64,000 nt of DNA, from positions 3,100,001 to 3,164,000 of the forward strand of contig NW_008805064.1 in NCBI RefSeq assembly GCF_000004825.1, given 5' to 3'. Positions 1 through 55,689 of the stretch are shown piece after piece; the first letter of the stretch is position 1, and every line of letters begins with the position of its first letter. The translations under genes were made by a program, and so were the position numbers. The stretch comes from Heterostelium album PN500 (lineage: Eukaryota; Evosea; Eumycetozoa; Acytosteliales; Acytosteliaceae). Under the pieces are notes generated by a model. The model was given only the letters and a program-made list of their open reading frames with translations. It had not been told where the DNA came from and searched no databases.

Positions 1-826
1 AAAAATAATTTGAAATAAACTGATTTATTTTTAGCAATTCAAACAACAGTCTTTGTACACATTGTTCTTTTTTGTTGCTGGATATGAGTAAATGAAATAG
101 CTCTGTTTCCTTGGTCATGCATAATGGATTGATCAACTTTGCATTGGATTTCAGAAAAAGGTTTCTCTAAGAGAAGTGGTTAAGAGTTTTAATCCTTGTG
201 TTCTGAAAGAAGAACGAACTATAGTTCGTATTCTCTCAAATCCCATAACTATATTGATATGTATCATGTAGATAAACCCACTAATATAATTAATAAACAA
301 CTCACCTATCAAGCGACATTGTATTTCTAGATTGTTCATAGTTTCTATTGTCATGTCTCTGTGCTATCCCAGATGACAGTTTGTGCAAACAAGCTGTTGT
401 CCGTCTAAGGACAATGAGGTAGCCGCCAAGGCAATGCCGGCACCCATCAATCAACATCAATAATATACACCAGCCAACATTTAGTAATAGTCAATTATAA
501 TTAATTAAATTAATTAAATCAACTAAATAAGTAATAGTTCAAAACAACAGATCGAAATAATAATTAAATTAGAATCTGTTGTTTCTGAATTAAGTATTCA
601 ACACTCAGCCGTCAAGCTTCTCAATAATGAATATATTGAGTTTAACGCGACGTTAAAGAGGGAATTCAAGTTTTATTCAATTGATTCAATCTATTCAAGA
701 ATTAATTAGATTATTGGAACAAAGATTAATAAATAAACAAAAGAGAAAATAAGAGTTAAATTTAAATTATATAAAGACATTATTAAAAACATTATTTATT
801 ATTATTAATTATTATTTGAATAAGGA
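1..826. other. Intergenic DNA with a GC-richer island and a short inverted repeat
   Basis: No gene is recognised. Positions about 390-455 are clearly richer in G+C than the surroundings and contain a small hairpin (TTGTCC / GGACAA near 398-415) and a CCGCC..GGC stretch. A perfect 11-bp inverted repeat, AAACAACAGAT at 542-552 and its complement at 574-584, could form a stem with a 21-base loop. A minus-strand open frame at 151-354 looks non-coding: it has low complexity and no recognisable family. The last 100 bases are an A/T-rich leader to the small gene that begins at 827. Confidence 0.4.
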
Positions 827-1138
827 ATGCCAGATCCAACCGATCAATCAACAACAACAACAACCACAACAACCAGTAGTGCAGCAGCACCTACTGCTAC
901 AACAACCACAACAAATGATCTTACGATGAATGATCTCGAGAACAACAACGATAATGATTCAATCCCATCAACCTCTATGTTATTCCCGGATGTTACTCCC
1001 AACAACACTCGTCCAGACCCACTCCCATCCGATTTATTCAAATCTACTCTGGCTGCTTCCAAATTACCGATCTCCTCTGCTGTCGCTCCAAGCCAGTCGG
1101 ATAAAAAACACAAGCTTACAAAGAAAGTGATTCTTTAA
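827..1138 (+). CDS. Small Thr/Asn-rich protein with a C-terminal motif shared with a transposon terminus
   Basis: 103 codons, starting at an ATG after a long A/T-rich leader and ending in TAA. The N-terminal half is low complexity (Thr runs, Ala, Asn). The C-terminal part, roughly residues 64-95, reads DPLPSDLFKSTLAASKLPIS and continues to QSDKKHK. Almost the same peptide is encoded by the terminal inverted repeats of the 709-bp element at 24925-25633 (DPLPTDLFQSSLASSKLPIS). The DNA also aligns along this stretch and the match stops at the same place as the element end, near position 1106. It may be a host gene whose end was captured by the element, or an old element terminus now lying in an open frame. 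No family is recognised and expression is unproven. Confidence 0.45.
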   Translation: MPDPTDQSTTTTTTTTSSAAAPTATTTTTNDLTMNDLENNNDNDSIPSTSMLFPDVTPNNTRPDPLPSDLFKSTLAASKLPISSAVAPSQSDKKHKLTKKVIL

Positions 1139-1741
1139 ATTTTGGTTGTTGTTGTTATTCATTTGTATAATAGGATATAATAAGTATAATAGATATTAAG
1201 TTTTACAGATGGTAGAGACTTTATTTGTATTTAATAAAATATATTTTTGTAACAGATTTGTTTATGATGAATTTTATTATAAGATTGATAATAAACTGAT
1301 TTATTATGTACAATTACAGAAAGGTGATTAACTAGTTAGCCTATGGAAGTTTAGATTTTTATACTATTTCATTTCTCTTATTTTCATATATTACTATTTA
1401 TTGCAACCTAATTATCATTATCTATTACCTCTTATGAAATTTAATAACTCCAAAAAGTTAATAATAACAAATAATATCATTATATTATTTTGAAATGATA
1501 ATATATGAAAGTAGAACAGTGAATATATTTATATAAGTTGGGATAAATGTATATTATAATATCAATTAAAATATTAATAAAGAGTATAGTTTATTTGTAA
1601 TATGGATTGAGTTGATGAATGGTTTTAGTTCACTATCTTTAATTCACTTTTAACAATTGATTGCTTATTGACAATGATTGGTATTGATATAAAAATAATA
1701 ATTGCTATTCTTAAAGTGTATGTTTAGAACAATCATATTAT
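1139..1741. other. A/T-rich intergenic spacer
   Basis: No gene is seen. It holds 3' flanks of the small plus-strand gene and, at its far end, of the minus-strand repeat relic. The two are convergent. Confidence 0.6.
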
Positions 1742-3187
1742 TTATTCTCTTGATTTTTTAATTAGTTGTCTTCTTGATATTTGTTCGCAATTTGGGAGTG
1801 TAATCGTTTGTTTGTTGCTCAAAAGTGTGAATCCAATAAGTTTATAAATCCATGTTTGTTTATGACCTAGTCTTAGCGATTCCAATAATAGTTGTTGTTG
1901 TGTCATTTGAACCCTATTGTGGAGTTCGATTGTTTCATATCGAAATAGTGTCTAATATAGTTCAAAATTGGTCGGATCCCATTCAATTAATTTCAAGATT
2001 AGTTGTTGTTGTGTCATTGATCGTCCATTATTAAGTGTGATTGATTCACCTCTTGAAAGTGTCATTGCAAGGTTATAATATGAATTGAAATTGGTTGGAT
2101 CTAATTCTATTGATTTCAAGTATAATTGTTGTACAGTCATTGATTGTCCATTATTAAGTGTGATTGATTCACCATTTGAAAGTGTCATTGCAAGGTTATA
2201 ATATGAATTTGAATTTGGTTGGATCTAATTCTATTGATTTCAAGTATAATTGTTGTACAGTCATTGATTGTCCATTATTAAGTGTGATTGATTCACCTCT
2301 TGAAAGTGTTGGTTGCAAGGTTATAATATGAATATGAATTGGTTGGATCTAATTCTATTGATTTCAAGAATAATTGTTGTTTTGTCATTGATTGTCCATT
2401 ATTAAGTGTGATTGATTCACCTCTTGAAAGTGTCTTTGCAAGGTTATGATATGAATATGAATTGGTTGGATCACATTCTATTGATTTCAAGTATAGTTGT
2501 TGTTGTGTCATTGATTTTCCATTATTAAGTGTGATTGATTCACCTCTTGAAAGTGTTGTTGTAAGGTTATTATATGAATTTGAATTGGTTGGATCACATT
2601 CTATTGATTTCAAGTATAATTGTTGTACAGTCATTGATTGTCCATTATTAAGTGTGATTGATTCAAATCTTGAAAGTGTTGTTGCAAGGTTATAGTATGA
2701 ATTGAAATTGGTTGGATCTAAATTCTATTGATTTCAAGTATAGTTGTTGTACAGTCATTGATTGTCCATTATTAAGTGTGATTGATTTCACCTCTTGAAA
2801 GTGTTGTTGCAAGGTTATGATATGAATTTGAATTTGGTTGGATCTAATTCTATTGATTTCAAGAATAGTTGTTGTGCAGTCATTGATCGTCCATCATTAA
2901 GTATGATTGATTCACCTCTTGAAAGTGTCATTGCAAGGCTATCATATGACATGGAGTTGGTTGGATTACAATCAATTGATTTCAAGTATAGTTGTTGTTC
3001 TGTCATTGATTGTCCATTAATAAGTGTGATTGATTCACCTCTTGAAAGTGTATTTGCAAGGCTATAGTATGAATATGAATTGGTTGGATCTAATTCTATT
3101 GATTTCAAGTATAATTGTTGTTGTGTCATTGATTGTCCATTATTAAGTGTGATTGATTCACCTCTTGAAAGTGTCATTGCAAGGCTA
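1742..3187 (-). pseudogene. Decayed 3' part of the protease-repeat gene (about 12 further repeat units and C-terminal cap)
   Basis: Downstream of the stop of the fused protease-repeat gene the same 117-bp units continue, but the reading frame is broken repeatedly. Relative to intact units I see one-base insertions near 3207, 2834, 2787, 2721, 2311 and 2214, and an in-frame TAG at about 1952-1954. After that stop the frame continues to TAA at 1744-1742 and encodes a terminal cap with TLLSNKQTITLPN and SRRQL. The same cap closes the second repeat locus (near 53940-54060, NNKQTIKLPNGQQMSRRQLL), so the original gene must once have run to 1742. Either the array has been truncated by decay, or the assembly carries indel errors in a region that is hard to sequence. 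Segments 3222-2815, 2634-2293 and 2188-1952 are the surviving open pieces. Confidence 0.75.
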
Positions 3188-5500
3188 TCATATGACATGG
3201 AGTTGGTTTGGATTACAATCAATTGATTTCAAGTATAGTTGTTGTTCTGTCATTGATTGTCCATTATTAAGTGTGATTGATTCACCTCTTGAAAGTGTAT
3301 TTGCAAGGCTATAGTATGAATATGAATTGGTTGGATCTAATTCTATTGATTTCAAGTATAATTGTTGTTGTGTCATTGATTGTCCATTATTAAGTGTGAT
3401 TGATTCACCTCTTGAAAGTGTTGGTGCAAGGTTATAATATGAATATGAATTGGTTGGATCTAATTCTATTGATTTCAAGAATAGTTGTTGTTCTGTCATT
3501 GATTGTCCATTATTAAGTGTGATTGATTCACCTCTTGAAAGTGTTGTTGCAAGGTTATGATATGAATTTGAATTGGTTGGATCACATTCTATTGATTTCA
3601 AGAATATTTGTTGTTTTGTCATTGATTGTCCATTTGGAAGTGTGATTAATTCAAATCTTGAAAGTGTCATTGCAAGGTTATTATATGAATTTGAATTGGT
3701 TGGATCACATTCTATTGATTTCAAGAATAGTTGTTGTACAGTCATTGATTGTCCATTATTAAGTGTGATTGATTCACCTCTTGAAAGTGTCATTGCAAGG
3801 CTATAGTATGAATTTGAATTGGTTGGATCTAATTCTATTGATTTCAAGTATAGTTGTTGTACAGTCATTGATTGTCCATTATTAAGTGTGATTGATTCAA
3901 ATCTTGAAAGTGTTGTTGCAAAGCTATGATATGAATATGAATTGGTTGGATCACATTCAATTGATTTCAAGAATAGTTGTTGTTGTGTCATTGATTGTCC
4001 ATTATTAAGTGTGATTGATTCACCTCTTGAAAGTGTTGTTGCAAGGTTATAATATGAATTTGAATTGGTTGGATCTAATTCTATTGATTTCAAGAATATT
4101 TGTTGTACAGTCATTGATTGTCCATTATTAAGTGTGATTGATTCACCTCTTGAAAGTGTATTTGCAAGGCTATAGTATGAATATGAATTGGTTGGATCTA
4201 ATTCTATTGATTTCAAGTATAATTGTTGTTGAGTCATTGATCGTCCATTATTAAGTGTGATTGATTCACCTCTTGAAAGTGTTGTTGCAAGGCTATAGTA
4301 TGAATATGAATTGGTTGGATCACATTCTATTGATTTCAATAATAGTTGTTGTACAGTCATTGATTGTCCATTATTAAGTGTGATTGATTCACCATTTGAA
4401 AGTGTCATTGTAAGGTTATAATATGAATTTGAATTGGTTGGATCTAATTCTATTGATTTCAAGTATAATTGTTGTTGTGTCATTGATTGTCCATTATTAA
4501 GTGTGATTGATTCACCTCTTGAAAGTGTTGTTGTAAGGTTATTATATGAATTTGAATTGGTTGGATCACATTCAATTGATTTCAAGTATAGTTGTTGTTG
4601 TGTCATTGATTGTCCATTATTAAGTGTGAATGATTCACTTCTTGAAAGTGTCATTGCAAGGTTATAATATGACATGGAATCACATTCTATTGATTTCAAG
4701 TATAGTTGTTGTGTCATTGATTGTCCATTATTAAGTGTGATTGACTCACCTCTTGAAAGTGTTGTTGCAAGGCTATTATATGAAATTGAATTGGTTGGAT
4801 CACATTCTAATGATTTCAAGAATATTTGTTGTTTTGTCATTGACTGTCCATTATTAAGTGTGATTGATTCACCATTTGAAAGTGTCTTTGCAAGGTTATG
4901 ATATGAATTTGAATTGGTTGGATCACATTCTATTGATTTCAAGTATAGTTGTTGTACAGTCATTGATTGTCCATCATTAAGTGTGATTGATTCAAATCTT
5001 GAAAGTGTTGTTGCAAGGCTATAGTATGAATATGAATTGGTTGGATCACATTCAATTGATTTCAAGAATAGTTGTTGTTTTGTCATTGATTGTCCATTAT
5101 TAAGTGTGATTGATTCACCTCTTGAAAGTGTTGTTGCAAGGTTATGATATGAATTTGAATTGGTTGGATATAATTCTATTGATTTCAAGAATATTTGTTG
5201 TGTCATTGATTGTCCATTATTAAGTGTGATTGATTCACCTCTTGAAAGTGTTGGTGCAAGGTTATGATATGGATATGAATTGGTTGGATCATAATCAATT
5301 GATTTCAATAATAATTGTTGTTTTGTCATTGATTGTCCATTATTAAGTGTGATTGATTCACCTCTTGAAAGTGTTGTTGCAAGGTTATAATATGACATAG
5401 AATTGGTTGGATCACACTCTATTGATTTCAAGTATAGTTGTTGTACAGTCATCGATTGTCCATCATTAAGTGTAATAGATTCACCACTCGAAAGTTTCGA
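1955..5500 (-). repeat. Tandem array of about 30 units of 117 bp (39 codons)
   Basis: The unit is 117 bp; successive copies of GATTGATTCACCT fall 117 bases apart. On the minus strand each unit encodes a TPR-like helix pair of the form LYLKSIE.DPTNS.SYYNLA, followed by an insert of the form RGESITLNNGQSMTQQQ. Units are nearly identical at the DNA level with changes concentrated at a few codons (for example QQQ/VQQ/KQQ/EQQ, ECD/ELD, SNSYYN/SYSYHS). A two-unit block near 2931-3165 is repeated almost exactly at 3170-3400, so copies have been duplicated recently. A few units lack one codon or more (around 4673 and 5195). Confidence 0.9.
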
Positions 5501-7929
5501 TCCAAAATTATTACTCTTAGAATATATAAAAAAATCACTTTTAAAAAATTTAGGTTAATATTTGGGGCTGTAAGATTGTTAAAATAGTTGTTATTACCTT
5601 TCAAATATATTTTCATAGTATTCTTTGTTATCTAATGTTGAATTACTCAAAGGGATCTTTGATTCCCTACCCTTACCGAATGTTCTGATATCTCCAATTG
5701 GTATATCTTTAGTAATTAAAGTAGAGAGTTTGAATGGTTGGAAAAAAGACATATAGGGTTCCAACATGGAATTATTGTCTTTGATGAACACTGAATCATT
5801 CAAAACATAATCATGATAGGCATTCCAAAATAGAGGATTGGTCACAGAGAGAGCAACATTTTCTGAGTTTGACCATCCACCAATATGTATTCCTGAGAAT
5901 GTTCTTTGATGTTTTGAGTTTGATAGAACACCACCAGAAGTACCTGGGAGAGCTTGGCAATGATGAAGCAATTTGATTTCCTTGATATCTTTGATATTCG
6001 ACGTTTGATTGAATATCGTCTTGTGCTGAAAACCACGAGTATTCATTATGATACTAATCATTATTTGTCCTGCATCCAGATGTCTGAACTCATCGACAAA
6101 CCTGTCGAAATCAATATGGTTTGGATATCCGATAACAAAATGATTAGAAGATAAATCATTGGTTGGAATCATTGGTAATAGATATTCTTGATCGAGTGGT
6201 GGTTCACTTTTAAATTTGAGGATATTGACATTGGAGTTTCCGAAAACTAACTCCAACTCAAAGACACCTTCATTATTGTCAATATCATCCAAAAATATTT
6301 CGCTTTCAATGGTGGCATCATATCCAAAGTAAATATATATCTTATCATGTTCGAAGATCTTAGATTGATCTTGATATTGGAGAAGGTGACCAGAAGTTAC
6401 AACAGTATCATTCTTCACACAAAAACCAGTTCCAAAATTCCATTCTTCAATATTGCCTGGTAATAAAAATCTGATAAAAAGTAAATAATAATGTAATGAT
6501 CATGATTTTAATGTATTAATAATTATTTACCTTACAAATATTCTTCCAACTGCTTTTGATGCTGTTTCATAATTTAGACGATCAGGGAGTTCCGTGTCAG
6601 GTAGGTTAATCTTTGATTCACTATTTAATGTAAATATTTTGTCTAGATCTGAACCAAGAAAAAATCTTTCATCAATGAATGATATAGATTCATTTTTATA
6701 TTTAAAATAATTCAGATATTGTTCCAAATGTTGAAGGTTTTCGTTGATGAATTGATCATCAAGAACAAAAGTATGATAAAAATGCCAGAACAATGGGTGT
6801 GTCACTGAGAGTGCAAAATTACCATTGGTTATTTCTGAATTTCCACCGAGATGAACCCCAATGAACTTTCTTTCGGATTTGTAGTTGGCCAAAATACCAC
6901 CTGCAGCACCTTTGAGTGTTGGACATATATGTGAAATTACATTATCTTTTAAACTGACAACTTTGCCAATAAAGATAGTCTTTTTCTGGCAAGTTTCAAT
7001 GATATCCTCCAATTGATTGCCAATTTCTTTCACAAATTCATCTGGATATCCTACAACATAGTGATCAAACTTTGGCTGTTGATTGGAAGATTGATGAAAT
7101 GTATAGTCGTCAATCTCTTGGCCATTAGTTGGAATCATTGGAAATAGAATGTCTATGTCTGTTGGTTGTATTCCTTTGAATCTTAGAATCTCCATATCGT
7201 TGTTGGTGTTCCAGACGTATCTTTGATCGTCTACAGGGTATACAGCTTTGTCTTTAGTCAGATAATAGTTCGTTGTCTTATCAAAATCACTACCACTTGA
7301 CTCCGACTCCAAATCAGACGATTTACCGTTATCTCCAGACAAAGAATCGTTAGGTGTATGATCACTTCCACTTGACTCAGTATCAGTATATTGGCTGCGG
7401 TTAGGTCTAATATTATCACCAGTGATAATCAAAGGATCATTAAACGTATGATCACATTCTCTGCCACATGACTCCAACTCGTACATTGGGAAGTCGGGAT
7501 CATCCCCTACAGTGGCATCGTCATCAAAGTATATAAAAATCTTTTCGTATTTAAGATTTCTCTGCATCTCTTGGGTTTCTTTTGATGCAGATGTATCTAC
7601 AGGGAATGATAGCACATGAGCAGCAGTCATAACAAGATTACTCTTCACGCAAAAACCAGTGCCACACGACCAAAATGCCTTCTCTTTTCCTGGTACCTTA
7701 AACCTATGTGGTAAATTAAAAAATGTTAAAGTTTTTGTTTTTCCCAAAAATAATACAATAAAACATACCTTACAAATATTCTTCCAACAGCTTTTGATGT
7801 ATTTTCATACTCAATGTGCGACAAGTGAAATGGTTTTTTGTGTATTGCTACGATTTGTTCGACTAGACTATTATCGAGAACCACTCCTTCAGCAGAGTCG
7901 GAACTCAAAGGAATGATAATATTAGACAT
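3188..7929 (-). CDS. Tandem trypsin-like (pseudo)protease domains fused to about 20 TPR-like repeats
   Basis: Four exons: 7929-7769, 7703-6531, 6470-5598 and 5537-3188, all joined in phase 2; about 1518 aa. Exon 1 is an N-terminal leader ending in NTSKAVGRIFVR. Exon 2 is a chymotrypsin-fold domain with GTGFCVK, TAAHVL (His83) and NNDMEIL (Asp223), but GAAGG where GxSGG is expected, so the catalytic Ser is Ala321. Exon 3 repeats the domain with SGHLL (His473) and GTSGG (Ser623), but the Asp position is Asn525 (NVNILKF). Exon 4 holds the 39-residue repeats. Its stop comes from a frameshift inside a unit, after which relic repeats continue. The single-domain neighbours at 8931 and 10428 keep full triads. 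By family rules neither domain here should be a normal protease; a sensor, scaffold or inhibitor role is inference. The exon 3/4 junction (60-bp intron, AAAAG acceptor) is the least certain and is chosen because it alone opens the repeat frame. Confidence 0.8.
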
Positions 7930-8930
7930 TCTTTTTCAAAACTATGATGACTAGTTTTTTAAAGTAGTTTATTAATAGTTATAACAGAGCCAAAAAAGTT
8001 TTAAATTTTACAAAAAATAATTGAAATGCTTTTTAGTTTTGTGGTCTATAGAAAATTAAAAAAAAGCAAAAAAAATTTGAAATGAAAATTTTTGTGGACA
8101 TTATTAGTGGTGACCATTGATTAAATTTTGTTACTATCAACTTTTTTTCTATCTGACCTCACTCCTATGATTTGTTTTGTTTCATTTAAAAAAAAAATTA
8201 TTTAAAAATATCTTATTTTGTTGTTATAAACTTAGTTTTTTTTTTATTTCTCATATTTTTATTTTTATCAAAACAATTTTTTGGAAACTACAAATGTATG
8301 ATCAGATTGTATTTTTTTTTAATATTTTTTTCTTAAATCATTGTAAGATTTATTAGATTTCATAAAAAAAAAATTATTTAAAAATAATAGATTCGATCAC
8401 ACAAACATATATAGATATCCATTATATCCATTTATAGAAAACTAAAGTTCAAAGATATTTAAATCTTGAAAACTAATTAAATTGAGTAATATCTTTAAAC
8501 TTTTATCTATTTTTATTTCTTTAAACTATCTCTTTATTAAATATTTTGATCTTATTGATTTAGCGCACTGTTTGATCAATCCTATTTACTAATATGATGT
8601 CTCACCCCACCAAAAAAAAACTCACCCCACCACACAGTTTTTCAAACCATATGGTTTTTTATAAACAACCATATATTTTTCACATTACAAACACACATTC
8701 AACCCTTAATTCACGATTTTTAGTATGAAGTAATGCCTTATGAATAAAGTAATAGTGGTACTGGTGGTCCTGATTCATAGCAATTTAAATTTAGCTTGGC
8801 TGACAATGGCACGATCATTGTTTTATACGGTGCCATGATTCTTATTCTTTATTTATATCTGTTCACAACTATTACTTTTGTACTCCTATCACCGTCGTTG
8901 TTGTTATTAAATCACAGACTGCTTCTATTA
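7930..8930. other. A/T-rich intergenic region
   Basis: Upstream region of the fused protease-repeat gene and 3' flank of the next protease gene. It contains poly-A/T tracts and a direct repeat of CTCACCCCACC around 8600-8630. No coding region or RNA gene is seen. Confidence 0.6.
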
Positions 8931-10112
8931 TCAGTTTATTGTTGTTTGTTGTAGAAGATTCTGCAGTTGTTGTTGTAGTTGGTGTAGTTGTTGATTTTGT
9001 TGTAGTTTTTGTAGTTGTTCTAGTGAATATTTTAAATAAGGTTCTAAAAGTACATAATTTTGTTTGGTGAACTCTTCATCGAGAACATACGTCGCATAAA
9101 CATATATAAAAAGTGGGTGAGTGACTGACAACGCTATATTTCCTGTTAATGTGTTACTTCCAAGGTGTATTCCAATAAATTGGTCTTTGAATTCACTGTT
9201 TGCCAATACACCACCAGAGGTACCTGGAAGTGTCGGACATTGATGTGTCAATACCTTTTCATTGGAACCTGTTACTTTACCAATGCAAATAGTCTTTCTC
9301 TGAAATCCTCTGTAAGCTGAATAAAAGTTATAAATATTTTTGTTGATCTTATTATCAACTCCAGAAAGCTTCCTAATGAACGTATCCAAATCTGCGTATC
9401 CTGGGTAACCCATTACATAATGAACTTTGCTAGCTGTGGGGCCACTCGGTATCATTGGGAAGAGATAGCCTTGTTTGATTGGTGAATTGTTGTTTTCGAA
9501 TCTAAGAACCTCTAGATCGTTGTTAATAAACCAATTGTATTGTTTATCCTGACTTTTATCGACTCCGGGTATCAACAATGGTTCTTTGAATTGATTGTCA
9601 AACTCTCTTCCGCATGATTTCAATCTAAAGACGCCACGAGTATTATCAATGCCACACATTGCAATCTCTCTCTCAATGTGGGCATCATTACCAAAATAGA
9701 TATATATTGAAATATTTTTGCTCTTTGGGTTTTGAAGTACATGTGCTGCTGTGATGATGATATCTTTCTTCACACAAAAACCTGTTCCATATTTCCATTC
9801 ATCTTTCTCATCCTCTTTTGACAATCTTGTTTATTTGTTAATTTCTATAGTGATAACAATAATATATATTTATATATCATACCTCACAATGATTCTACCA
9901 ACAGCTTTACATGCTGATTCATAGTGTTGTTTATATTCCAAATTCGGTGGGGGTACCTCTAAACGACTATTAAATATTCGAACATCTTTAGATTCTGCCT
10001 GTGAACGATTATTAATTACTCCATCATCTTTCGAAAATTCTCCATCTTTTATATTCAGAGATATACTTATATCATCTCTCTCTTGTTCCAACGTTTCAAT
10101 TGTTTTTGTCAT
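8931..10112 (-). CDS. Trypsin-like serine protease, single domain, Gln-rich tail
   Basis: Two exons, 10112-9883 and 9825-8931, giving about 374 aa; the acceptor after AACAAG is the one that keeps the frame open. Exon 1 is a divergent leader ending in ACKAVGRIIVR, matching the leader end of its neighbours. Exon 2 begins at the protease fold: GTGFCVK, TAAHVL (His105), NNDLEVLRF (Asp180) and LPGTSGGVLAN (Ser280). All three catalytic residues are present, so activity is likely. The last 30 residues are rich in Gln and Leu. There is no signal peptide, so a cytosolic role is suggested. The fold resembles trypsin-like peptidases of the HtrA/S1C type, but no PDZ domain follows. It is a tandem paralog of the genes at 3188-7929 and 10428-11570. 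Confidence 0.85.
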
Positions 10113-10427
10113 AAATAATTATAAAATCTGTATTCTTATAAAAAAAAACAAAGTAAATTGAAGATTCTTTTTGTTTTTTTATTTTTTTTGTTCAAAAAAA
10201 ATTGGTCCACACATATCGCAGACACAATTGTGCAATTTTTTTATTTGAAAAGAAAAGAATTGGAAACCATGCATAAAATTAAATCTGTTCAATTGAGAAA
10301 TAATAATTGAATTAAAGATTAATCAAAAATTATTGTTGATAACTTACAAAATTCAAATCTCTTTTGTCGTTCATTTTAATAAAGAGTTAGATACGACTAA
10401 CATAAATCGATATTGAGTATAATGTGT
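10113..10427. other. Short A/T-rich spacer between protease paralogs
   Basis: About 315 bases with A/T tracts. It serves as promoter of the 8931-10112 gene and 3' flank of the 10428-11570 gene. Nothing else is seen. Confidence 0.6.
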
Positions 10428-11570
10428 TTATTTAGCTGGATATGATTTTTGACAAAAATTTAAATAAGGTTGCAAATCTTCAAGGTTGTTTTGAATGAAT
10501 TGATCATCGAGCACATAGGTTCTATAAACATCCCAGAATAATTGATGTGTCACCGATATCGCAATATTTCCTGCTTCTATATCGCCACCGAGATGAACTC
10601 CGATAAACTTCTTTTCGTGAAGGCGATTGCCATTCGCAAGAATACCACCCGATGTACCTTTTAGTGTTGGGCATTGGTGTGACAATACATTATCGAAACT
10701 AACAACTTGTCCGACATAGACTGTTTTTTTCTGAAAACTAGCAGAATCTTGGACCAGATCGTCATAGAGCTTCGTTAAATGTTGGTCCAATGCACCCTTG
10801 TAATCCAATACAAAGTGATCCAATTCTACGTGGCCTGGATATCCCATGACATAGTGTGAGTCATGCTCTGCATCGTTTGTTGGAATCATTGGAAGTAGAA
10901 TTTCAATGCCCGCTGGTGGTGTTCCTTTGAATCTGAGAACCTGTAAGTCGTTGAGTGTATGCCAGGCATATTTCTGACCGTTTTGTCCAGTGGAAATCAA
11001 TTGATATTTCGGATAACTAAAATTTCCACACGACTCTAACTCATACATTGATTTGGGGTCAATCTCTGAAAGGTTGATCTCATCATTGATAGTGGCATTG
11101 GTGCCAAAGTATATATAAATCTTATCGTATCTAAGATTTTCCTGTATCTCTTTAATCTCTTTCGATGCTTTCGAATCAACAGGATATTGAAGGACATGAG
11201 ATGCAGTCATAACAAGATTACTCTTCACACAGAATCCAGTTCCACAAAACCAAGATAGCTTTTCTTTTTCTGGCTCATTATTTGAAATTTTGCTAATATT
11301 ATAACTATAGATAATAAAGAATAATAATAAAAAGATTTAGTGTTAGATTGATTATAAACCAACTAATGTTCATATTTCCTCACATCCATACCTTACAAAT
11401 ATTCTACCAATGCCTTTTGATGTATTTTCATAGGTTAGTTTGTGTTGCAAATGAGGTTTTCCTAAGATCTTTGAATAACTATTCAATGTGGCGATGTAAC
11501 CAATTTTATTTCCTTCCACATGAAACACACATTCAGCAGAGTCTGAACTCAAAGTAGTAACTGGCTCCAT
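10428..11570 (-). CDS. Trypsin-like serine protease, single domain
   Basis: Two exons, 11570-11392 and 11304-10428, about 351 aa. Exon 1 starts SSDSAE close to the leader of the fused gene (both contain LSSDSAE) and ends in NTSKGIGRIFVR just before a phase-2 intron. Exon 2 has GTGFCVK, TASHVL (His96), LNDLQVLRF (Asp179) and LKGTSGGILAN (Ser278), a complete triad. There is no signal peptide or membrane segment and no repeat domain. Closest in sequence to domain 1 of the fused gene (shared SNLVMTA, LLPMIPTN, GVHLGG). It is the most upstream gene of the three-gene minus-strand cluster. Confidence 0.85.
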
Positions 11571-11917
11571 TCTTAATTAAATAAAAGTGATAAACAAATA
11601 AAAAAATATTTTGAAATAAACTATGACAACTAAATTGATTTTGTTTTTGATAACACTTCACTGATCCCAGAGAAAAAAATAATGGTGTATTATTGACAAA
11701 CTTTAGCGATATATTTAGTTCCACAACAAAACCTCAAGTCATTTTGATTTAATAAAAAATTTTTATGAAATTGTGATAACCCTAGTGTGGTGCACCACCA
11801 GTAAAATAAAATCTTTTTTGATTGGGTTTCAAAGAATTAAGTGTTGTGGAGAACATTTTCGCTTATTTTGTAACATGAACACTTTTTAAGTAAAAAAATC
11901 AATCTCCCCGAAATGAA
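11571..11917. other. Divergent promoter region
   Basis: Spacer between the minus-strand protease gene and the plus-strand adenylate-forming enzyme. A/T-rich apart from a GC-containing palindrome at 11787-11798, listed separately. Confidence 0.6.
11787..11798. promoter_or_regulatory. Perfect 12-bp palindrome in a divergent promoter
   Basis: GTGGTGCACCAC is its own reverse complement and sits about 220 bp upstream of the protease start and 120 bp upstream of the enzyme start. It is conspicuously GC-rich for this spacer, so it could bind a dimeric factor. Function is not shown. Confidence 0.35.
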
Positions 11918-11939
11918 ATGGTTTCATCGAAAGATGTAA
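11913..11939 (+). promoter_or_regulatory. Overlapping upstream ORF
   Basis: An ATG five bases before the main start opens an 8-codon frame that ends in TAA inside the main coding region. It could reduce initiation at 11918 or favour the in-frame ATG at 11945. Confidence 0.35.
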
Positions 11940-13708
11940 GTAAAATGAATTTTTTTTCTGTTTCCCAAGAGAATAATCAATTTTTAGATTTATATTTATA
12001 TATGGATTCTTTATATAATAGATTAATTAATAGATATAAAAATAATAGTAATAGTAGTAGTAAAGAATGTATTATCTGTGTTGAAAGTGGTTTGATTGGA
12101 AAGAATGAAGATAGAATATTTAATCAGAAAGATCTAATCGATAGATGTAATCAGTTTATAGATGATATCAAACCATTGATATCGAATCAAACGATCATAC
12201 CATACTTTGCACTATTTATGTCGAATTCGTTTGATTCACTTTGTTTATTGATAGCACTGTCCGCTCTCTATAAAACAGTTGACCAAGCGACTGGTAGTGA
12301 AACTAATTGCTATTGTTCGACCATTTTGATGCCACCCAATTTAAAACGTGATGAAATCACTACATTGATGAACAGATCGAAAGTCTCCACAATAATTATA
12401 CCTAATGATATTGGTATAAACCACGATACTTTTATACAAACAACAACAACAACAACAACAACACCTTCATCATCAATAACAACATCAAAAATAACATTAA
12501 TATACAGTAATAATAGATTTTCAATATATAAAACTGAATATATAATGAATAGAGTTGGTGAGGTTGTAGCGGATGAACCGACTGTCTGTCAATTGACAAG
12601 TGGATCTACCTCACCGTCATCAAAGATATCAATTAGAACTTGGAAATCGATTATAGAAGAAGCAGAGGTGGTTGCCAAGCAGTTAGACTATACAGCAGAA
12701 GATACGATTTTAGTTAATTCCGCTATATCGCATTCCTATGGCTTGGTAGGTGGCATCGTTTCATCATTACTATCAGAGTCGTTGATCATTCTACCGATTT
12801 CACTAGATCATTTATACCAGATAGATAACTTGTCAATCGACAGTAACAACAACAACAACAAATTAAAAGTCAACATTATGTTTGGTGTTAGAAGTTCCTA
12901 TCATTGGCTAGCAGAGAGAGTGTTACTTCCGAGATGCCTGTTTGAATCTTTGGAGGCTAGTACTTTGAGATATGCAATGTGTGCAGGCTCGATGATACCC
13001 GCTGACCTCATAGTTCAACTGCGATCAAAGACAGGCATACAACTACGTTCAAACTATGGCACAACTGAGACTGGCACCATTACCATCGATACAACAACAA
13101 CAGGTAACAGATCTGACGATGAAAATGACAATGTTAATGTTAGTAGTGTTGGTATTCGTCTAGGTCAGTTATTACCACATTTTCAATATAGACTATCATC
13201 AACTGAAATCAATCAAGACGAACTGCTTTTGAAATCGACATGTCTCTCTAGAGGTTACATCAAAGACGATCACATTGAATTAGCAACAGATAAAGAAAAT
13301 TGGTTTCACACCAAAGATCATATAACTATAGCATCATCGAAAGAAGATCAACAAATTAATATATTTTATTATCAAAATAGAATAAGATATTATAAATATA
13401 AAAATAATAGTAATAATAATGATGTATTTGATCCAGTTCTTATTGAAAAACAATTGTTGGTTCACTTTAATAATATAATATCGGATATAGTTTTAGTGGA
13501 AGATAAAATCTTTAAATGCTATATAACACTTGTGAACAACAACAACCAATCTAATAGTAATGATATTAATAGTTTCAAAAAATCAATAACTCTAGATATT
13601 GAACAATATATATCAGTTCACCAACCGTTATTGACACCGATAACCATAGTAATAGAAGAGATTCTACCATATTCACCCGCTGGCAAATTACTATTAAAGT
13701 ATTTATAA
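11918..13708 (+). CDS. Adenylate-forming (AMP-binding) enzyme, acyl-CoA synthetase-like
   Basis: One exon, 596 aa. The core motifs of the ANL superfamily are visible in order: a P-loop-like TSGSTSPSSKI (about residue 227), RSNYGTTETG (about 383), a degenerate HTKDHITI in place of TGD (about 467), and near the C-terminus YSPAGKLLLKYL with the Lys normally used for adenylation. An insert of Thr and Ser (residues 170-190) and Asn runs are dictyostelid-type low complexity. The substrate cannot be read from the sequence; a carboxylic acid activated to an acyl-adenylate and then a thioester is the family reaction. The altered A3 and A7 motifs suggest specialised or weak activity. There is no obvious peroxisomal tail. 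Confidence 0.75.
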   Translation: MVSSKDVSKMNFFSVSQENNQFLDLYLYMDSLYNRLINRYKNNSNSSSKECIICVESGLIGKNEDRIFNQKDLIDRCNQFIDDIKPLISNQTIIPYFALFMSNSFDSLCLLIALSALYKTVDQATGSETNCYCSTILMPPNLKRDEITTLMNRSKVSTIIIPNDIGINHDTFIQTTTTTTTTPSSSITTSKITLIYSNNRFSIYKTEYIMNRVGEVVADEPTVCQLTSGSTSPSSKISIRTWKSIIEEAEVVAKQLDYTAEDTILVNSAISHSYGLVGGIVSSLLSESLIILPISLDHLYQIDNLSIDSNNNNNKLKVNIMFGVRSSYHWLAERVLLPRCLFESLEASTLRYAMCAGSMIPADLIVQLRSKTGIQLRSNYGTTETGTITIDTTTTGNRSDDENDNVNVSSVGIRLGQLLPHFQYRLSSTEINQDELLLKSTCLSRGYIKDDHIELATDKENWFHTKDHITIASSKEDQQINIFYYQNRIRYYKYKNNSNNNDVFDPVLIEKQLLVHFNNIISDIVLVEDKIFKCYITLVNNNNQSNSNDINSFKKSITLDIEQYISVHQPLLTPITIVIEEILPYSPAGKLLLKYL

Positions 13709-53869: not shown

Positions 53870-55455
53870 TTATTTTTTGAATATTATTCGTATTTGAAAA
53901 TATAAATTGTAAATCAGGAGAATTATATTTTTATTTACCTCTTGTTTTTGAAGTAGTTGTCTTCTTGACATTTGTTGACCATTTGGAAGTTTAATCGTTT
54001 GTTTGTTGTTCAAAAGTGTGAATGCAATGTGTTTGTATGTCAATGCTTGTGTATGATCTAATCTTATAGATTCCAATAATAGTTGTTGTTTTGTCATTAT
54101 AACACCATTTTTGAGTGTAATAGATTCATCTCGGTATAGAGGAATTGCTAGTTTAAGGTATGTATCGGATTGGGTTGGATCACATTCTATTGATTTCAAT
54201 AATAATTGTTGTTGAGTCATTGATTGTCCATCATTAAGTGTGATTGATTCACCATTTGAAAGTGTGGTTGCAAGGTTATAATATGAATCAGAATTGGTTG
54301 GATCTAATTCTATTGATTTCAAGTATAAGTTGTTGTTCTGTCATTGAATTGTCCATTATATAAGTGTGATTGATTCACCACTTGTAAGTGTCAATGCTAG
54401 GTTATGATATGAATTTGAATGTGTTGGATTGCATTCTATTGCTTTCAAATAAAGTTGTTGTACAGTCATTGACTGTCCATTATTAAGTGTTACTGAATGA
54501 CCTTCTGGAGTTAAATTTGCAAGGTTATTATATGAATTTGAATTGTTTGGATCACACTCTATTACTTTTAAGTATAGTTGTTGTTGTGTCATTGATTGTC
54601 CATTATTAAGTGTGATTGATTCAAATCTTGAAAGTTTCGTTGCCAGGTTATAGAATGATTTTGAATGTTTTGGATCACATTCTATTGATTTTAAGTATAG
54701 TTGTTGTTCTGTCATTGATTGCCCATTATTAAGTGTTATTAATTCACCACTTGAAAGTGTCAATGCTAGGTTAAAATAAGATTTTGAATTTGTTGGACCA
54801 CAATCTATTGCTATTAATAGTAATTGTCGCTTTGTCGCAGATTGTCCATTTGGAAGTGTGATTGATTCACCACTTGAAAGTGTATTTGAAAGGTTAAAAT
54901 ATGAATCTCTATCCGATGGATCACACTCTAATGATTTTAAGTATAATTGTTGTCGTGTCATTGATTGTCCATTATTAAGTGTGATTGATTCACCATTTGA
55001 AAGTATCAATGCAAGGTTAGAGTATGGAATAGAAAAGGCTGGATCACATTCTATTGATTGCAAGTATAGTAGTTGTTGTGTCATTGATTGTCCATCATTA
55101 AATGTGATTGATTCACCACTTGAAAGTGTCATTGCAAGTTTATGATATGAATTTGAATGAGTTGGATTACATTCTATTGATTTCAAGTATAGTTGTTGTT
55201 CTGTCATTGATAGGCCCGATGGAAGAATGATAGATGATCGATTTTCATTTTTAAGAATTAATGCCAACTTGTAATAAGAAATAGCATAGTTAGATGATGA
55301 TCGATGACTTTCAATAAAAGTTGTTCTTTCGTTGTTGATTCACCAGATGGTAGTACAATTGCTTTTTGCTCTTTATCATCATGATCATCGAGTGTCATGA
55401 CAAGTTGGAGTAGTACATTATTATCATTTGAAGTAATACTATGTTTTCTTATCAT
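53870..55455 (-). pseudogene. Second 39-residue TPR-like repeat gene, without a protease domain, frame-broken
   Basis: Ten or more units of the same repeat as the 5-kb array occur here, but more diverged from one another (about half the residues vary). The head (55455-55258) starts MIRKHSITSNDNN without any protease or AVGRIFVR leader. The frame changes at about 55290-55300. A second break at 54320-54365 holds three separate one-base insertions relative to sister units (TATAAG, ATTGAATTG, ATTATATAAG), whose net effect is one codon, yet a stop falls between. The last units and cap (NNKQTIKLPNGQQMSRRQLL) match the end of the relic at 1742. The gene is therefore a paralog of the repeat part of the fused gene, and is either damaged or misassembled. 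Confidence 0.75.
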
Positions 55456-55689
55456 TTTTAAATAATCAAAGAATAATATTAGTGGTTTTTAGAAAAAAAG
55501 TTATAAAATAAAATTTATCTAATTTGCTGCTGAACTAATTTAAATTAGATAAAATATCATTCGAATTTATATAAACTATTACTAAGACAGAATTTTACTA
55601 AATTAAATAAAAAAATTTGAAAATAAAATAAATTTTGAAAAAAAAACTTAATATTTATTTAATTTCATGATGATAGTTAGATACTAAAG

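What the first reader, a model, noticed from the sequence alone, without database searches (positions are those of the whole stretch)
3188..7929. Protease-protease-repeat fusion beside single-domain active paralogs: possible sensor-effector cluster
Splicing signals join two trypsin-like domains to a long TPR-like repeat array in one gene, next to two genes with only the protease domain. Trypsin-like peptidases joined to repeat sensors are a known theme in conflict and cell-death systems of bacteria and fungi; a tandem-protease plus homogenised-repeat protein of this build is one I do not know. The sensor-effector idea is inference.
Basis: partly seen in the sequence, partly recalled or inferred. 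Interest (0 to 1): 0.85.

Follow-up and report, generated by a model that had tools for sequence, protein, structure and literature searches.

The report
Dead-protease pair joined to TPR array
In a social-amoeba genome, a gene carrying two trypsin-like domains that have each lost an active-site residue probably runs on into a long TPR repeat array, one of about fifty such arrays in that genome whose repeats are alike except mainly at positions expected to touch binding partners; the joint to the array is still unproven.

Summary
The two-protease part is solid: a paralogous tandem unit on contig C7 aligns through both domains and the linker. Both fused domains lack a triad residue (HDA, HNS), as in the C7 copy (HDA, HSS); neighbours G3 and G4 keep HDS. 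So the fused protein looks like a tandem pseudoprotease, not a sensor driving a protease. The joint to the array is weaker: its donor is the fossil first exon of a third protease gene, but an in-frame acceptor arises in 4,368 of 5,000 shuffles. Among 51 array loci in a capped listing, only this one coincides with a protease match. Bigger result: 250 units from 23 arrays carry 201 residue combinations at positions 2, 5, 9 and 13. Ligand-facing TPR positions have pN/pS 1.0-1.24, depending on numbering, against 0.50-0.56 elsewhere. That resembles high-internal-conservation TPRs of fungal NLRs, without a NOD part. 'Sensor-effector cluster' is not supported; 'diversified binding module' is.

The parts
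7769..7929 (-). Gene A exon 1 (start ATG at 7929), N-terminal leader of protease domain 1
   Evidence: Open frame, intron position shared with G3 and G4
7704..7768 (-). Intron 1, GT-AG, 65 bases
   Evidence: G+C 0.20 against 0.36 in exon 2
6531..7703 (-). Exon 2: Trypsin_2 domain 1 (triad H-D-A, serine lost) and a linker that resembles another family gene's first exon
   Evidence: linker resemblance by eye
6471..6530 (-). Intron 2, GT-AG, 60 bases, same place and phase as intron 1
5598..6470 (-). Exon 3: Trypsin_2 domain 2 (triad H-N-S, aspartate lost)
   Evidence: sister of C7 domain D2, support 100/99
5598..5695 (-). Fossil first exon of a third protease gene; supplies the donor of intron 3
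   Evidence: 5605-5695 is 78% identical to C7:648717-648798, which lies in exon 1 of gene C7_648
5538..5597 (-). Predicted intron 3, 60 bases; use unproven
   Evidence: in-frame acceptor expected by chance, 4,368 of 5,000 shuffles; 5514-5604 showed no similarity
3188..5537 (-). Exon 4: in-frame part of the TPR_17 array, 41-aa units, stop at 3188
   Evidence: TPR_17 620.8 bits; only 3-, 3- and 9-base indels from 5401 down to 3211
1738..3187 (-). Rest of the array in broken frame, with the family's usual 3' end at about 1738-1951
8931..10112 (-). G3, single-domain Trypsin_2 gene, triad intact, intron 9826-9882, 374 aa
   Evidence: sister of C7_658, support 100/99
10428..11570 (-). G4, single-domain Trypsin_2 gene, triad intact, intron 11305-11391, 351 aa

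Best explanation
Gene A encodes a tandem pseudoprotease that has probably captured a TPR array. Shown from sequence: two domains of a trypsin-like family form one unit; domain 1 lost the nucleophile serine and domain 2 the catalytic aspartate; a homologous two-domain unit with the same losses exists on C7, and both domains stay under purifying selection; here a third gene's first exon follows, and after that comes a TPR array without the family's usual start. Inferred: the unit arose by neighbouring genes running together, and the third exon's donor is spliced to the array, giving one protein in which two non-cleaving protease domains are tethered to an open TPR surface. Proposed action (inference): the dead domains hold, but do not cut, substrates, inhibitors or sister proteases, so tuning the active single-domain paralogues, while the array brings in a partner through its variable concave face. 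It would be an adaptor or decoy, not a cutting effector.
For: Spliced frame of 1,518 aa. Trypsin_2 and TPR_17 matches; Trypsin_2 in 17 of 17 family members scanned. Window 5822-7228 aligns at 72.6% through both domains and linker with C7:651622-653021. Domain 2 is sister of C7 D2 at 100/99. Triads HDA/HNS here and HDA/HSS on C7, against 13 of 21 aligned family domains with intact HDS. Ratios of Jukes-Cantor dN to dS worked out are about 0.40 (domain 1), 0.38 (domain 2), 0.40 (G3) and 0.45 (G4): the dead domains are about as constrained as the living ones. The fossil exon matches exon 1 of C7_648 and ends at a donor in the homologous place. The array has no MKRKH- or MENK-type start, and the window lacks the 5' flank seen before three arrays without a leader. 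Array indels are all multiples of three from 5401 down to 3211.
Against: No transcript. In-frame acceptors are common by chance. Translation without splicing stops at the donor. Framework pN/pS of this array is 0.81 (0.66-1.00), the highest of 20 arrays, which fits relaxed constraint. The C7 two-domain gene has no array match near it. Domain 1 is not resolved as sister of C7 D1 (not rejected either, AU p 0.172), and C7 D1 is closer in identity to C7_665 (70.0%) than to domain 1 (61.3%). Regulation of the paralogues is inference alone. The AlphaFold2 model of G4 failed (mean pLDDT 38.6).
Confidence: 0.48

Rival explanations
1. Two units, no fusion: the two-domain pseudoprotease ends at ENIFER-stop (the TAA inside the supposed intron), and the array behind it is a 5'-truncated, decaying pseudogene that arrived by ectopic recombination.
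For: Stop codon directly at the donor; acceptor frame expected by chance; framework pN/pS 0.81 in this array; frame breaks in the distal array; no array by the C7 two-domain gene; five other array loci lie within about 160 kb on this end of C3.
Against: About 2.3 kb of array without a frame break; all six breaks between 3210 and 2217 are +1 insertions that lengthen or double a base, and +1 insertions are common in some other arrays too, as base-calling error could give; proximal and distal parts have similar framework pN/pS, 0.81 and 0.77, so the distal part shows no extra decay.
Confidence: 0.32
2. The array is a working gene of its own that starts at an internal methionine of the first half unit (MTVQQLYLK), as some arrays elsewhere may.
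For: Three arrays (L014, L017, L051) begin close to MTEQQLYLK behind a similar 5' flank, seen by eye.
Against: That flank is absent from the window at up to 3 mismatches; bases 5514-5604 showed no similarity; only about 141 bases would separate stop and start; the half unit upstream is still readable as repeat.
Confidence: 0.12
3. One reading: the array senses something and releases protease activity in the same protein.
For: Fusion order protease-then-repeats; variable ligand-facing positions; trypsin-like effectors occur with sensors in bacterial conflict systems (PMC7159879, PMC10907252, passages read).
Against: Serine lost in domain 1 and aspartate lost in domain 2, in the C7 copy too; no NTPase or adaptor domain in the pieces scanned.
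Confidence: 0.04
4. The joint is an assembly error that placed an unrelated array behind the protease gene.
For: Long near-identical repeats are easily misassembled; P. pallidum, the likely species, was assembled from dideoxy and 454 reads (PMC5282741, passages read).
Against: The stretch around the junction, 5514-5604, looks unique and short enough for one read; no run of N in 1-12000.
Confidence: 0.04

Closest known systems
Trypsin_2 (PF13365) peptidases
   Same: 17 of 17 family members scanned match; H, D and S in place in 13 of 21 domains
   Different: No PDZ domain in the Pfam rows of the four window domains; signal peptides not tested; tandem domains with complementary losses; no relative confirmed in the pattern scans of the bacterial/archaeal and viral collections
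TPR_17 / consensus TPR repeats
   Same: Helix A and B motifs align with designed consensus TPRs
   Different: Seven extra residues between helix A and B in each unit, giving 41 instead of 34
High-internal-conservation TPRs of fungal NLRs (PMC4986451, abstract and passages read)
   Same: Much-alike repeats in arrays, with excess amino-acid change at positions expected on the concave side
   Different: No NACHT or NB-ARC match in the two arrays scanned; other arrays looked at have short or unmatched leaders; repeat-number change between isolates not tested
Bacterial trypsin-like/STAND conflict systems (PMC7159879, PMC10907252, passages read)
   Same: Trypsin-like domains occur together with sensor modules
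   Different: No NTPase or adaptor match in the pieces scanned; the fused protease domains lack triad residues

Membership tests
Trypsin_2 peptidase fold | Profile match above curated cut-off | tested here: met
   35.1, 27.9, 48.1 and 31.9 bits against 27.6
Trypsin_2 peptidase fold | Predicted chymotrypsin-type structure | tested here: inconclusive
   AlphaFold2 model of G4 exon 2 has mean pLDDT 38.6; the family profile against PDB sequences gives weak hits, mostly to chymotrypsin-fold proteases (25 rows at E up to 1, best 0.0066)
Active serine peptidase (fused domains) | Complete His-Asp-Ser triad | tested here: not met
   HDA and HNS
Active serine peptidase (G3, G4) | Complete His-Asp-Ser triad | tested here: met
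   HDS in both; activity itself not testable here
TPR array | Tandem TPR profile matches | tested here: met
   TPR_17, 18 stretches, 620.8 bits
NLR-type high-internal-conservation receptor | Repeats over 85% alike | tested here: inconclusive
   Mean pairwise identity 0.82 in this array, 0.55-0.87 over 20 arrays
NLR-type high-internal-conservation receptor | Excess replacement at concave positions | tested here: met
   Higher than elsewhere under each of five position sets (1.02-1.24 against 0.50-0.56, 20 arrays); clearly above 1 only in two of the five
NLR-type high-internal-conservation receptor | Central NACHT or NB-ARC NTPase and effector domain | tested here: not met
   None in the Pfam rows for gene A's pieces or the second window array
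NLR-type high-internal-conservation receptor | Repeat-number polymorphism between isolates | not testable with these tools
   One genome only

The most novel reading that the evidence does not exclude
This amoeba carries a genome-wide repertoire of TPR arrays that diversify their ligand-facing positions under selection while recombination keeps the framework alike, a non-NLR recognition repertoire for self/non-self or prey/pathogen proteins; gene A is the one member that has coupled such a module to a pseudoprotease pair that regulates a cluster of active sister proteases.
Probability: 0.1. Interest if true: 0.9.

Novelty: new variant of a known kind. Interest (0 to 1): 0.55.

Why it matters
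Diversified, recombining repeat arrays are a hallmark of recognition repertoires, as in fungal NLRs. A family of about fifty TPR arrays in a social amoeba with replacement-rich ligand positions would give a testable repertoire in an organism whose cells must tell kin, prey and parasites apart, and the gene here would show how such a module can be joined to a protease family. A tandem of dead proteases beside apparently living ones is also a clean case for studying pseudoprotease regulation.

Tried and rejected
Frame continuity as proof of intron 3: rejected, because 4,368 of 5,000 shuffles also offer an in-frame acceptor. Block duplication of the window trio from C7: only domain 2 and G3 have resolved C7 sisters; domain 1 with C7 D1 (AU p 0.172), G4 with C7_659 (p 0.263) and domain 1 with G4 (p 0.374) are neither shown nor rejected; domains 1 and 2 as sisters are rejected (p 5e-5), as is one clade of all four window domains. 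Relatives in the prokaryote and viral collections: 76 and 80 stretches matched a pattern, none confirmed. Structure: the G4 model was too poor to use, so no fold search was run; a model of the array could not be queued. phmmer of G4 against PDB: no match. Rfam: only the tRNA at 53.4 kb. The N-terminal module before the C25 array (L047): no Pfam match above its cut-off. Literature: searches for P. pallidum with tetratricopeptide (2 papers), dictyostelid genomes and family expansion (15 of 36 listed), conflict systems, genome assembly (8 of 1,859), repeats with heterokaryon incompatibility, TPR ligand positions (none), dictyostelid TPR tandem families (10 of 14) and P. pallidum with trypsin or serine protease (10 of 15,048): no listed title or abstract start is about this gene or the array family. 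A word search in PMC8535579 on dictyostelid family expansions found no 'TPR', 'repeat' or 'protease'.

Numbering and selection of positions. The four positions 2, 5, 9 and 13 were picked after looking at gene A's units. The seven TPR positions 2, 5, 9, 12, 13, 33 and 34 were noted from recall before the test and later found in PMC1261162 (passages read). The alignment with designed TPRs puts the seven-residue insert at unit 12-18 or 13-19 in several rows, so equating unit 13 with TPR 13 is uncertain. I lowered the novel case from 0.12 to 0.10 for this. Unit counts keep only complete ungapped 41-aa units found with a profile built from 14 gene A units: 511 matches, 250 after removing overlaps between loci, from 23 of 51 array loci. 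Three arrays with fewer than 5 units were left out of the per-array part and (identity rows). One search clustered the 150 listed matches, which said that more were not listed, so 51 is a lower bound.
Full report
The window is C3:3100001-3164000 of a 32.9-Mb genome in 39 contigs. Size, base composition and intron style suggest the dictyostelid Polysphondylium (Heterostelium) pallidum, described in PMC5282741 (passages read) as 41 supercontigs from dideoxy and 454 reads. The species name is inference.

The gene. On the minus strand, exons 7769-7929, 6531-7703, 5598-6470 and 3188-5537 join at GT-AG introns of 65, 60 and 60 bases into an open frame of 1,518 aa. Pfam finds Trypsin_2 in both halves of the protease part (the second just above the cut-off) and TPR_17 in the array; several unrelated families also pass their cut-offs on the array, best LapA at 59.1 bits, which I take as repeat artefacts. 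G3 and G4 next door are single-domain relatives, each with one intron at the same place and phase.

The family. A search of the whole genome with G4 gave 33 matches (only the best candidates are scored), all in two regions of C7 (one gene near 140 kb, a cluster at 646-676 kb) or at C3:3099073-3111570. I aligned 21 domains, leaving out one short piece (C7:668789-668899) and a decayed relic at C3:3098950-3099454: 13 of 21 keep His-Asp-Ser. The 8 that do not are domains 1 and 2 of gene A, D1 and D2 of a C7 gene, C7_646, and three divergent plus-strand C7 genes. All 17 members scanned with Pfam match Trypsin_2 (C7_665 and the three plus-strand genes were not in that set). A profile of the 17 against PDB sequences gives weak hits, mostly to chymotrypsin-fold proteases. 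The one structure model was too poor to use.

The two-domain fusion is well supported and not unique. On C7 the exon 652326-653351 ends with a similar linker and leads on to 651307-652284. Window 5822-7228 aligns as one piece to C7:651622-653021 at 72.6%. The losses match: domain 1 has alanine for the serine in both, domain 2 has lost the aspartate in both (Asn here, Ser there). Domain 2 and D2 are sisters (100/99), as are G3 and C7_658; domain 1 and D1 are not resolved (AU p 0.172), and D1 is closer in identity to C7_665. Jukes-Cantor dN/dS worked out is about 0.40 for domain 1, 0.38 for domain 2, 0.40 for G3 and 0.45 for G4, each against its assumed C7 counterpart, so the dead domains are kept about as strictly as the living ones.

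The joint to the array. Behind domain 2 lies a 98-base stretch that resembles the first exon of another family gene (5605-5695, 78% to C7:648717-648798), and its end is the donor of intron 3. This makes the donor credible. The acceptor is not tested by frame: 4,368 of 5,000 shuffles of the same bases also give an in-frame acceptor. Repeat homology stops at 5513 and protease homology at 5605, so the breakpoint lies in the 91 bases between. Unspliced, the protein ends at the donor. Base composition of the three introns is alike (0.20, 0.15, 0.23 G+C).

The array. It has 41-aa units, 28.8 copies at DNA level from 1966 to 5495, and ends like other arrays of the family near 1738. From 5401 to 3211 the indels are 3, 3 and 9 bases; then come six +1 insertions at 3210, 2836, 2789, 2723, 2313 and 2217, each lengthening a run or doubling a base; further indels below 1953 come from fitting the non-repeat 3' end to the repeat and are not counted. 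+1 insertions also occur in other arrays, for example 6 in a C12 array and 13 in a C25 array, beside deletions in several, so base-calling error is possible; decay is possible too. Framework pN/pS of this array is 0.81 (0.66-1.00), the highest of 20, but nearly equal in the intact and broken parts (0.81, 0.77).

The array family. A search with a 322-aa stretch of the array lists 150 matches that fall into 51 loci on 16 contigs, a lower bound. Apart from gene A, no array locus coincides with a protease match. I looked at the 5' side of 23 other array loci: an MKRKH-like leader in 10, a MENK-like leader in 4, no recognised leader in 8, and a cysteine-rich coiled N-terminus without a Pfam match above its cut-off in 1. 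The remaining 27 were not judged (not fetched, start not held, or fragments).

Variation. Alignment with designed consensus TPRs gives the numbering: unit positions 1-11 equal TPR 1-11 and 39-41 equal TPR 32-34; a seven-residue insert lies between the helices, beginning at unit 12 or 13 in different rows, so unit 12 and 13 are uncertain. Magliery and Regan report TPR positions 2, 5, 9, 12, 13, 33 and 34 as most variable and on the concave ligand face (PMC1261162, passages read). In 250 units from 23 arrays the most variable unit positions are 2, 9, 5, 13, 27 and 41. Taking 12 and 13 at face value, the seven positions have mean entropy 2.29 against 1.05 overall (p 2.5e-5 by random choice of positions); the other numberings give p 1e-4 to 1e-3. 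In 20 of 20 arrays with five or more units, replacement change at 2, 5, 9 and 13 exceeds that of the framework. Pooled with bootstrap over arrays, pN/pS is 1.24 (1.10-1.43) at the seven positions and 0.50 (0.46-0.55) elsewhere. With other numberings it is 1.10 (0.94-1.33), 1.02 (0.87-1.22), 1.07 (0.96-1.21) for 2, 5, 9, 40 and 41 alone, and 1.21 (1.09-1.40) for 2, 5 and 9, always against 0.53-0.56 elsewhere. There are 201 different residue combinations at 2, 5, 9 and 13 among 250 units, and 15 among gene A's 24. Not every number fits: positions 12 and 40 are fairly conserved, 27 and 20 are variable but not on the list, and pS at position 9 is as high as pN. So these positions are at least freed from the constraint on the rest; positive selection is likely but depends on the numbering, and gene conversion between repeats can distort such ratios.

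What it works like. Fungal NLR repeats with high internal conservation show a like pattern, with selected sites on the concave side of TPRs (PMC4986451, abstract and passages read). The amoeba arrays share it in part, but no NTPase or effector was found in the two arrays scanned, so I do not file them as NLRs. Bacterial conflict systems combine trypsin-like effectors with sensors (PMC7159879, PMC10907252, passages read), but there the peptidase is taken to act, whereas both domains here lack a triad residue.

Verdict. The tandem pseudoprotease is firm at sequence level; its joint to the array is about as likely as not; the sensor-effector reading is unlikely; the diversified array family is the finding most worth following.

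Noticed in passing
54101-55488 minus: A second array of the same family in the window, with an MIRKH-type start and frame changes near 55261-55339 and 54340-54359.
   Followed up: partly
395-1062: 76% identical to C7:655719-656361; the part 395-659 is 90% identical there, and 395-529 also resembles a stretch on C12 (L013), so it may be a dispersed element beside a small gene.
   Followed up: no
L045, C3:3098950-3099454: A decayed Trypsin_2 relic in several frames just left of the window, same strand as gene A.
   Followed up: partly
L047, C25:289439-291926: An array preceded by an ORF with a cysteine-rich, coiled N-terminus and no Pfam match above its cut-off: another possible array fusion.
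   Followed up: partly
arrays genome-wide: One-base insertions are the commonest frame break in several arrays: either base-calling error in repeats or a mutational bias.
   Followed up: partly
C3:2994586-3155183: Six array loci within about 160 kb, near the right end of contig C3.
   Followed up: no
11894-13708 plus: Long ORF that looks to me like an AMP-binding acyl-CoA synthetase (recalled, not searched).
   Followed up: no
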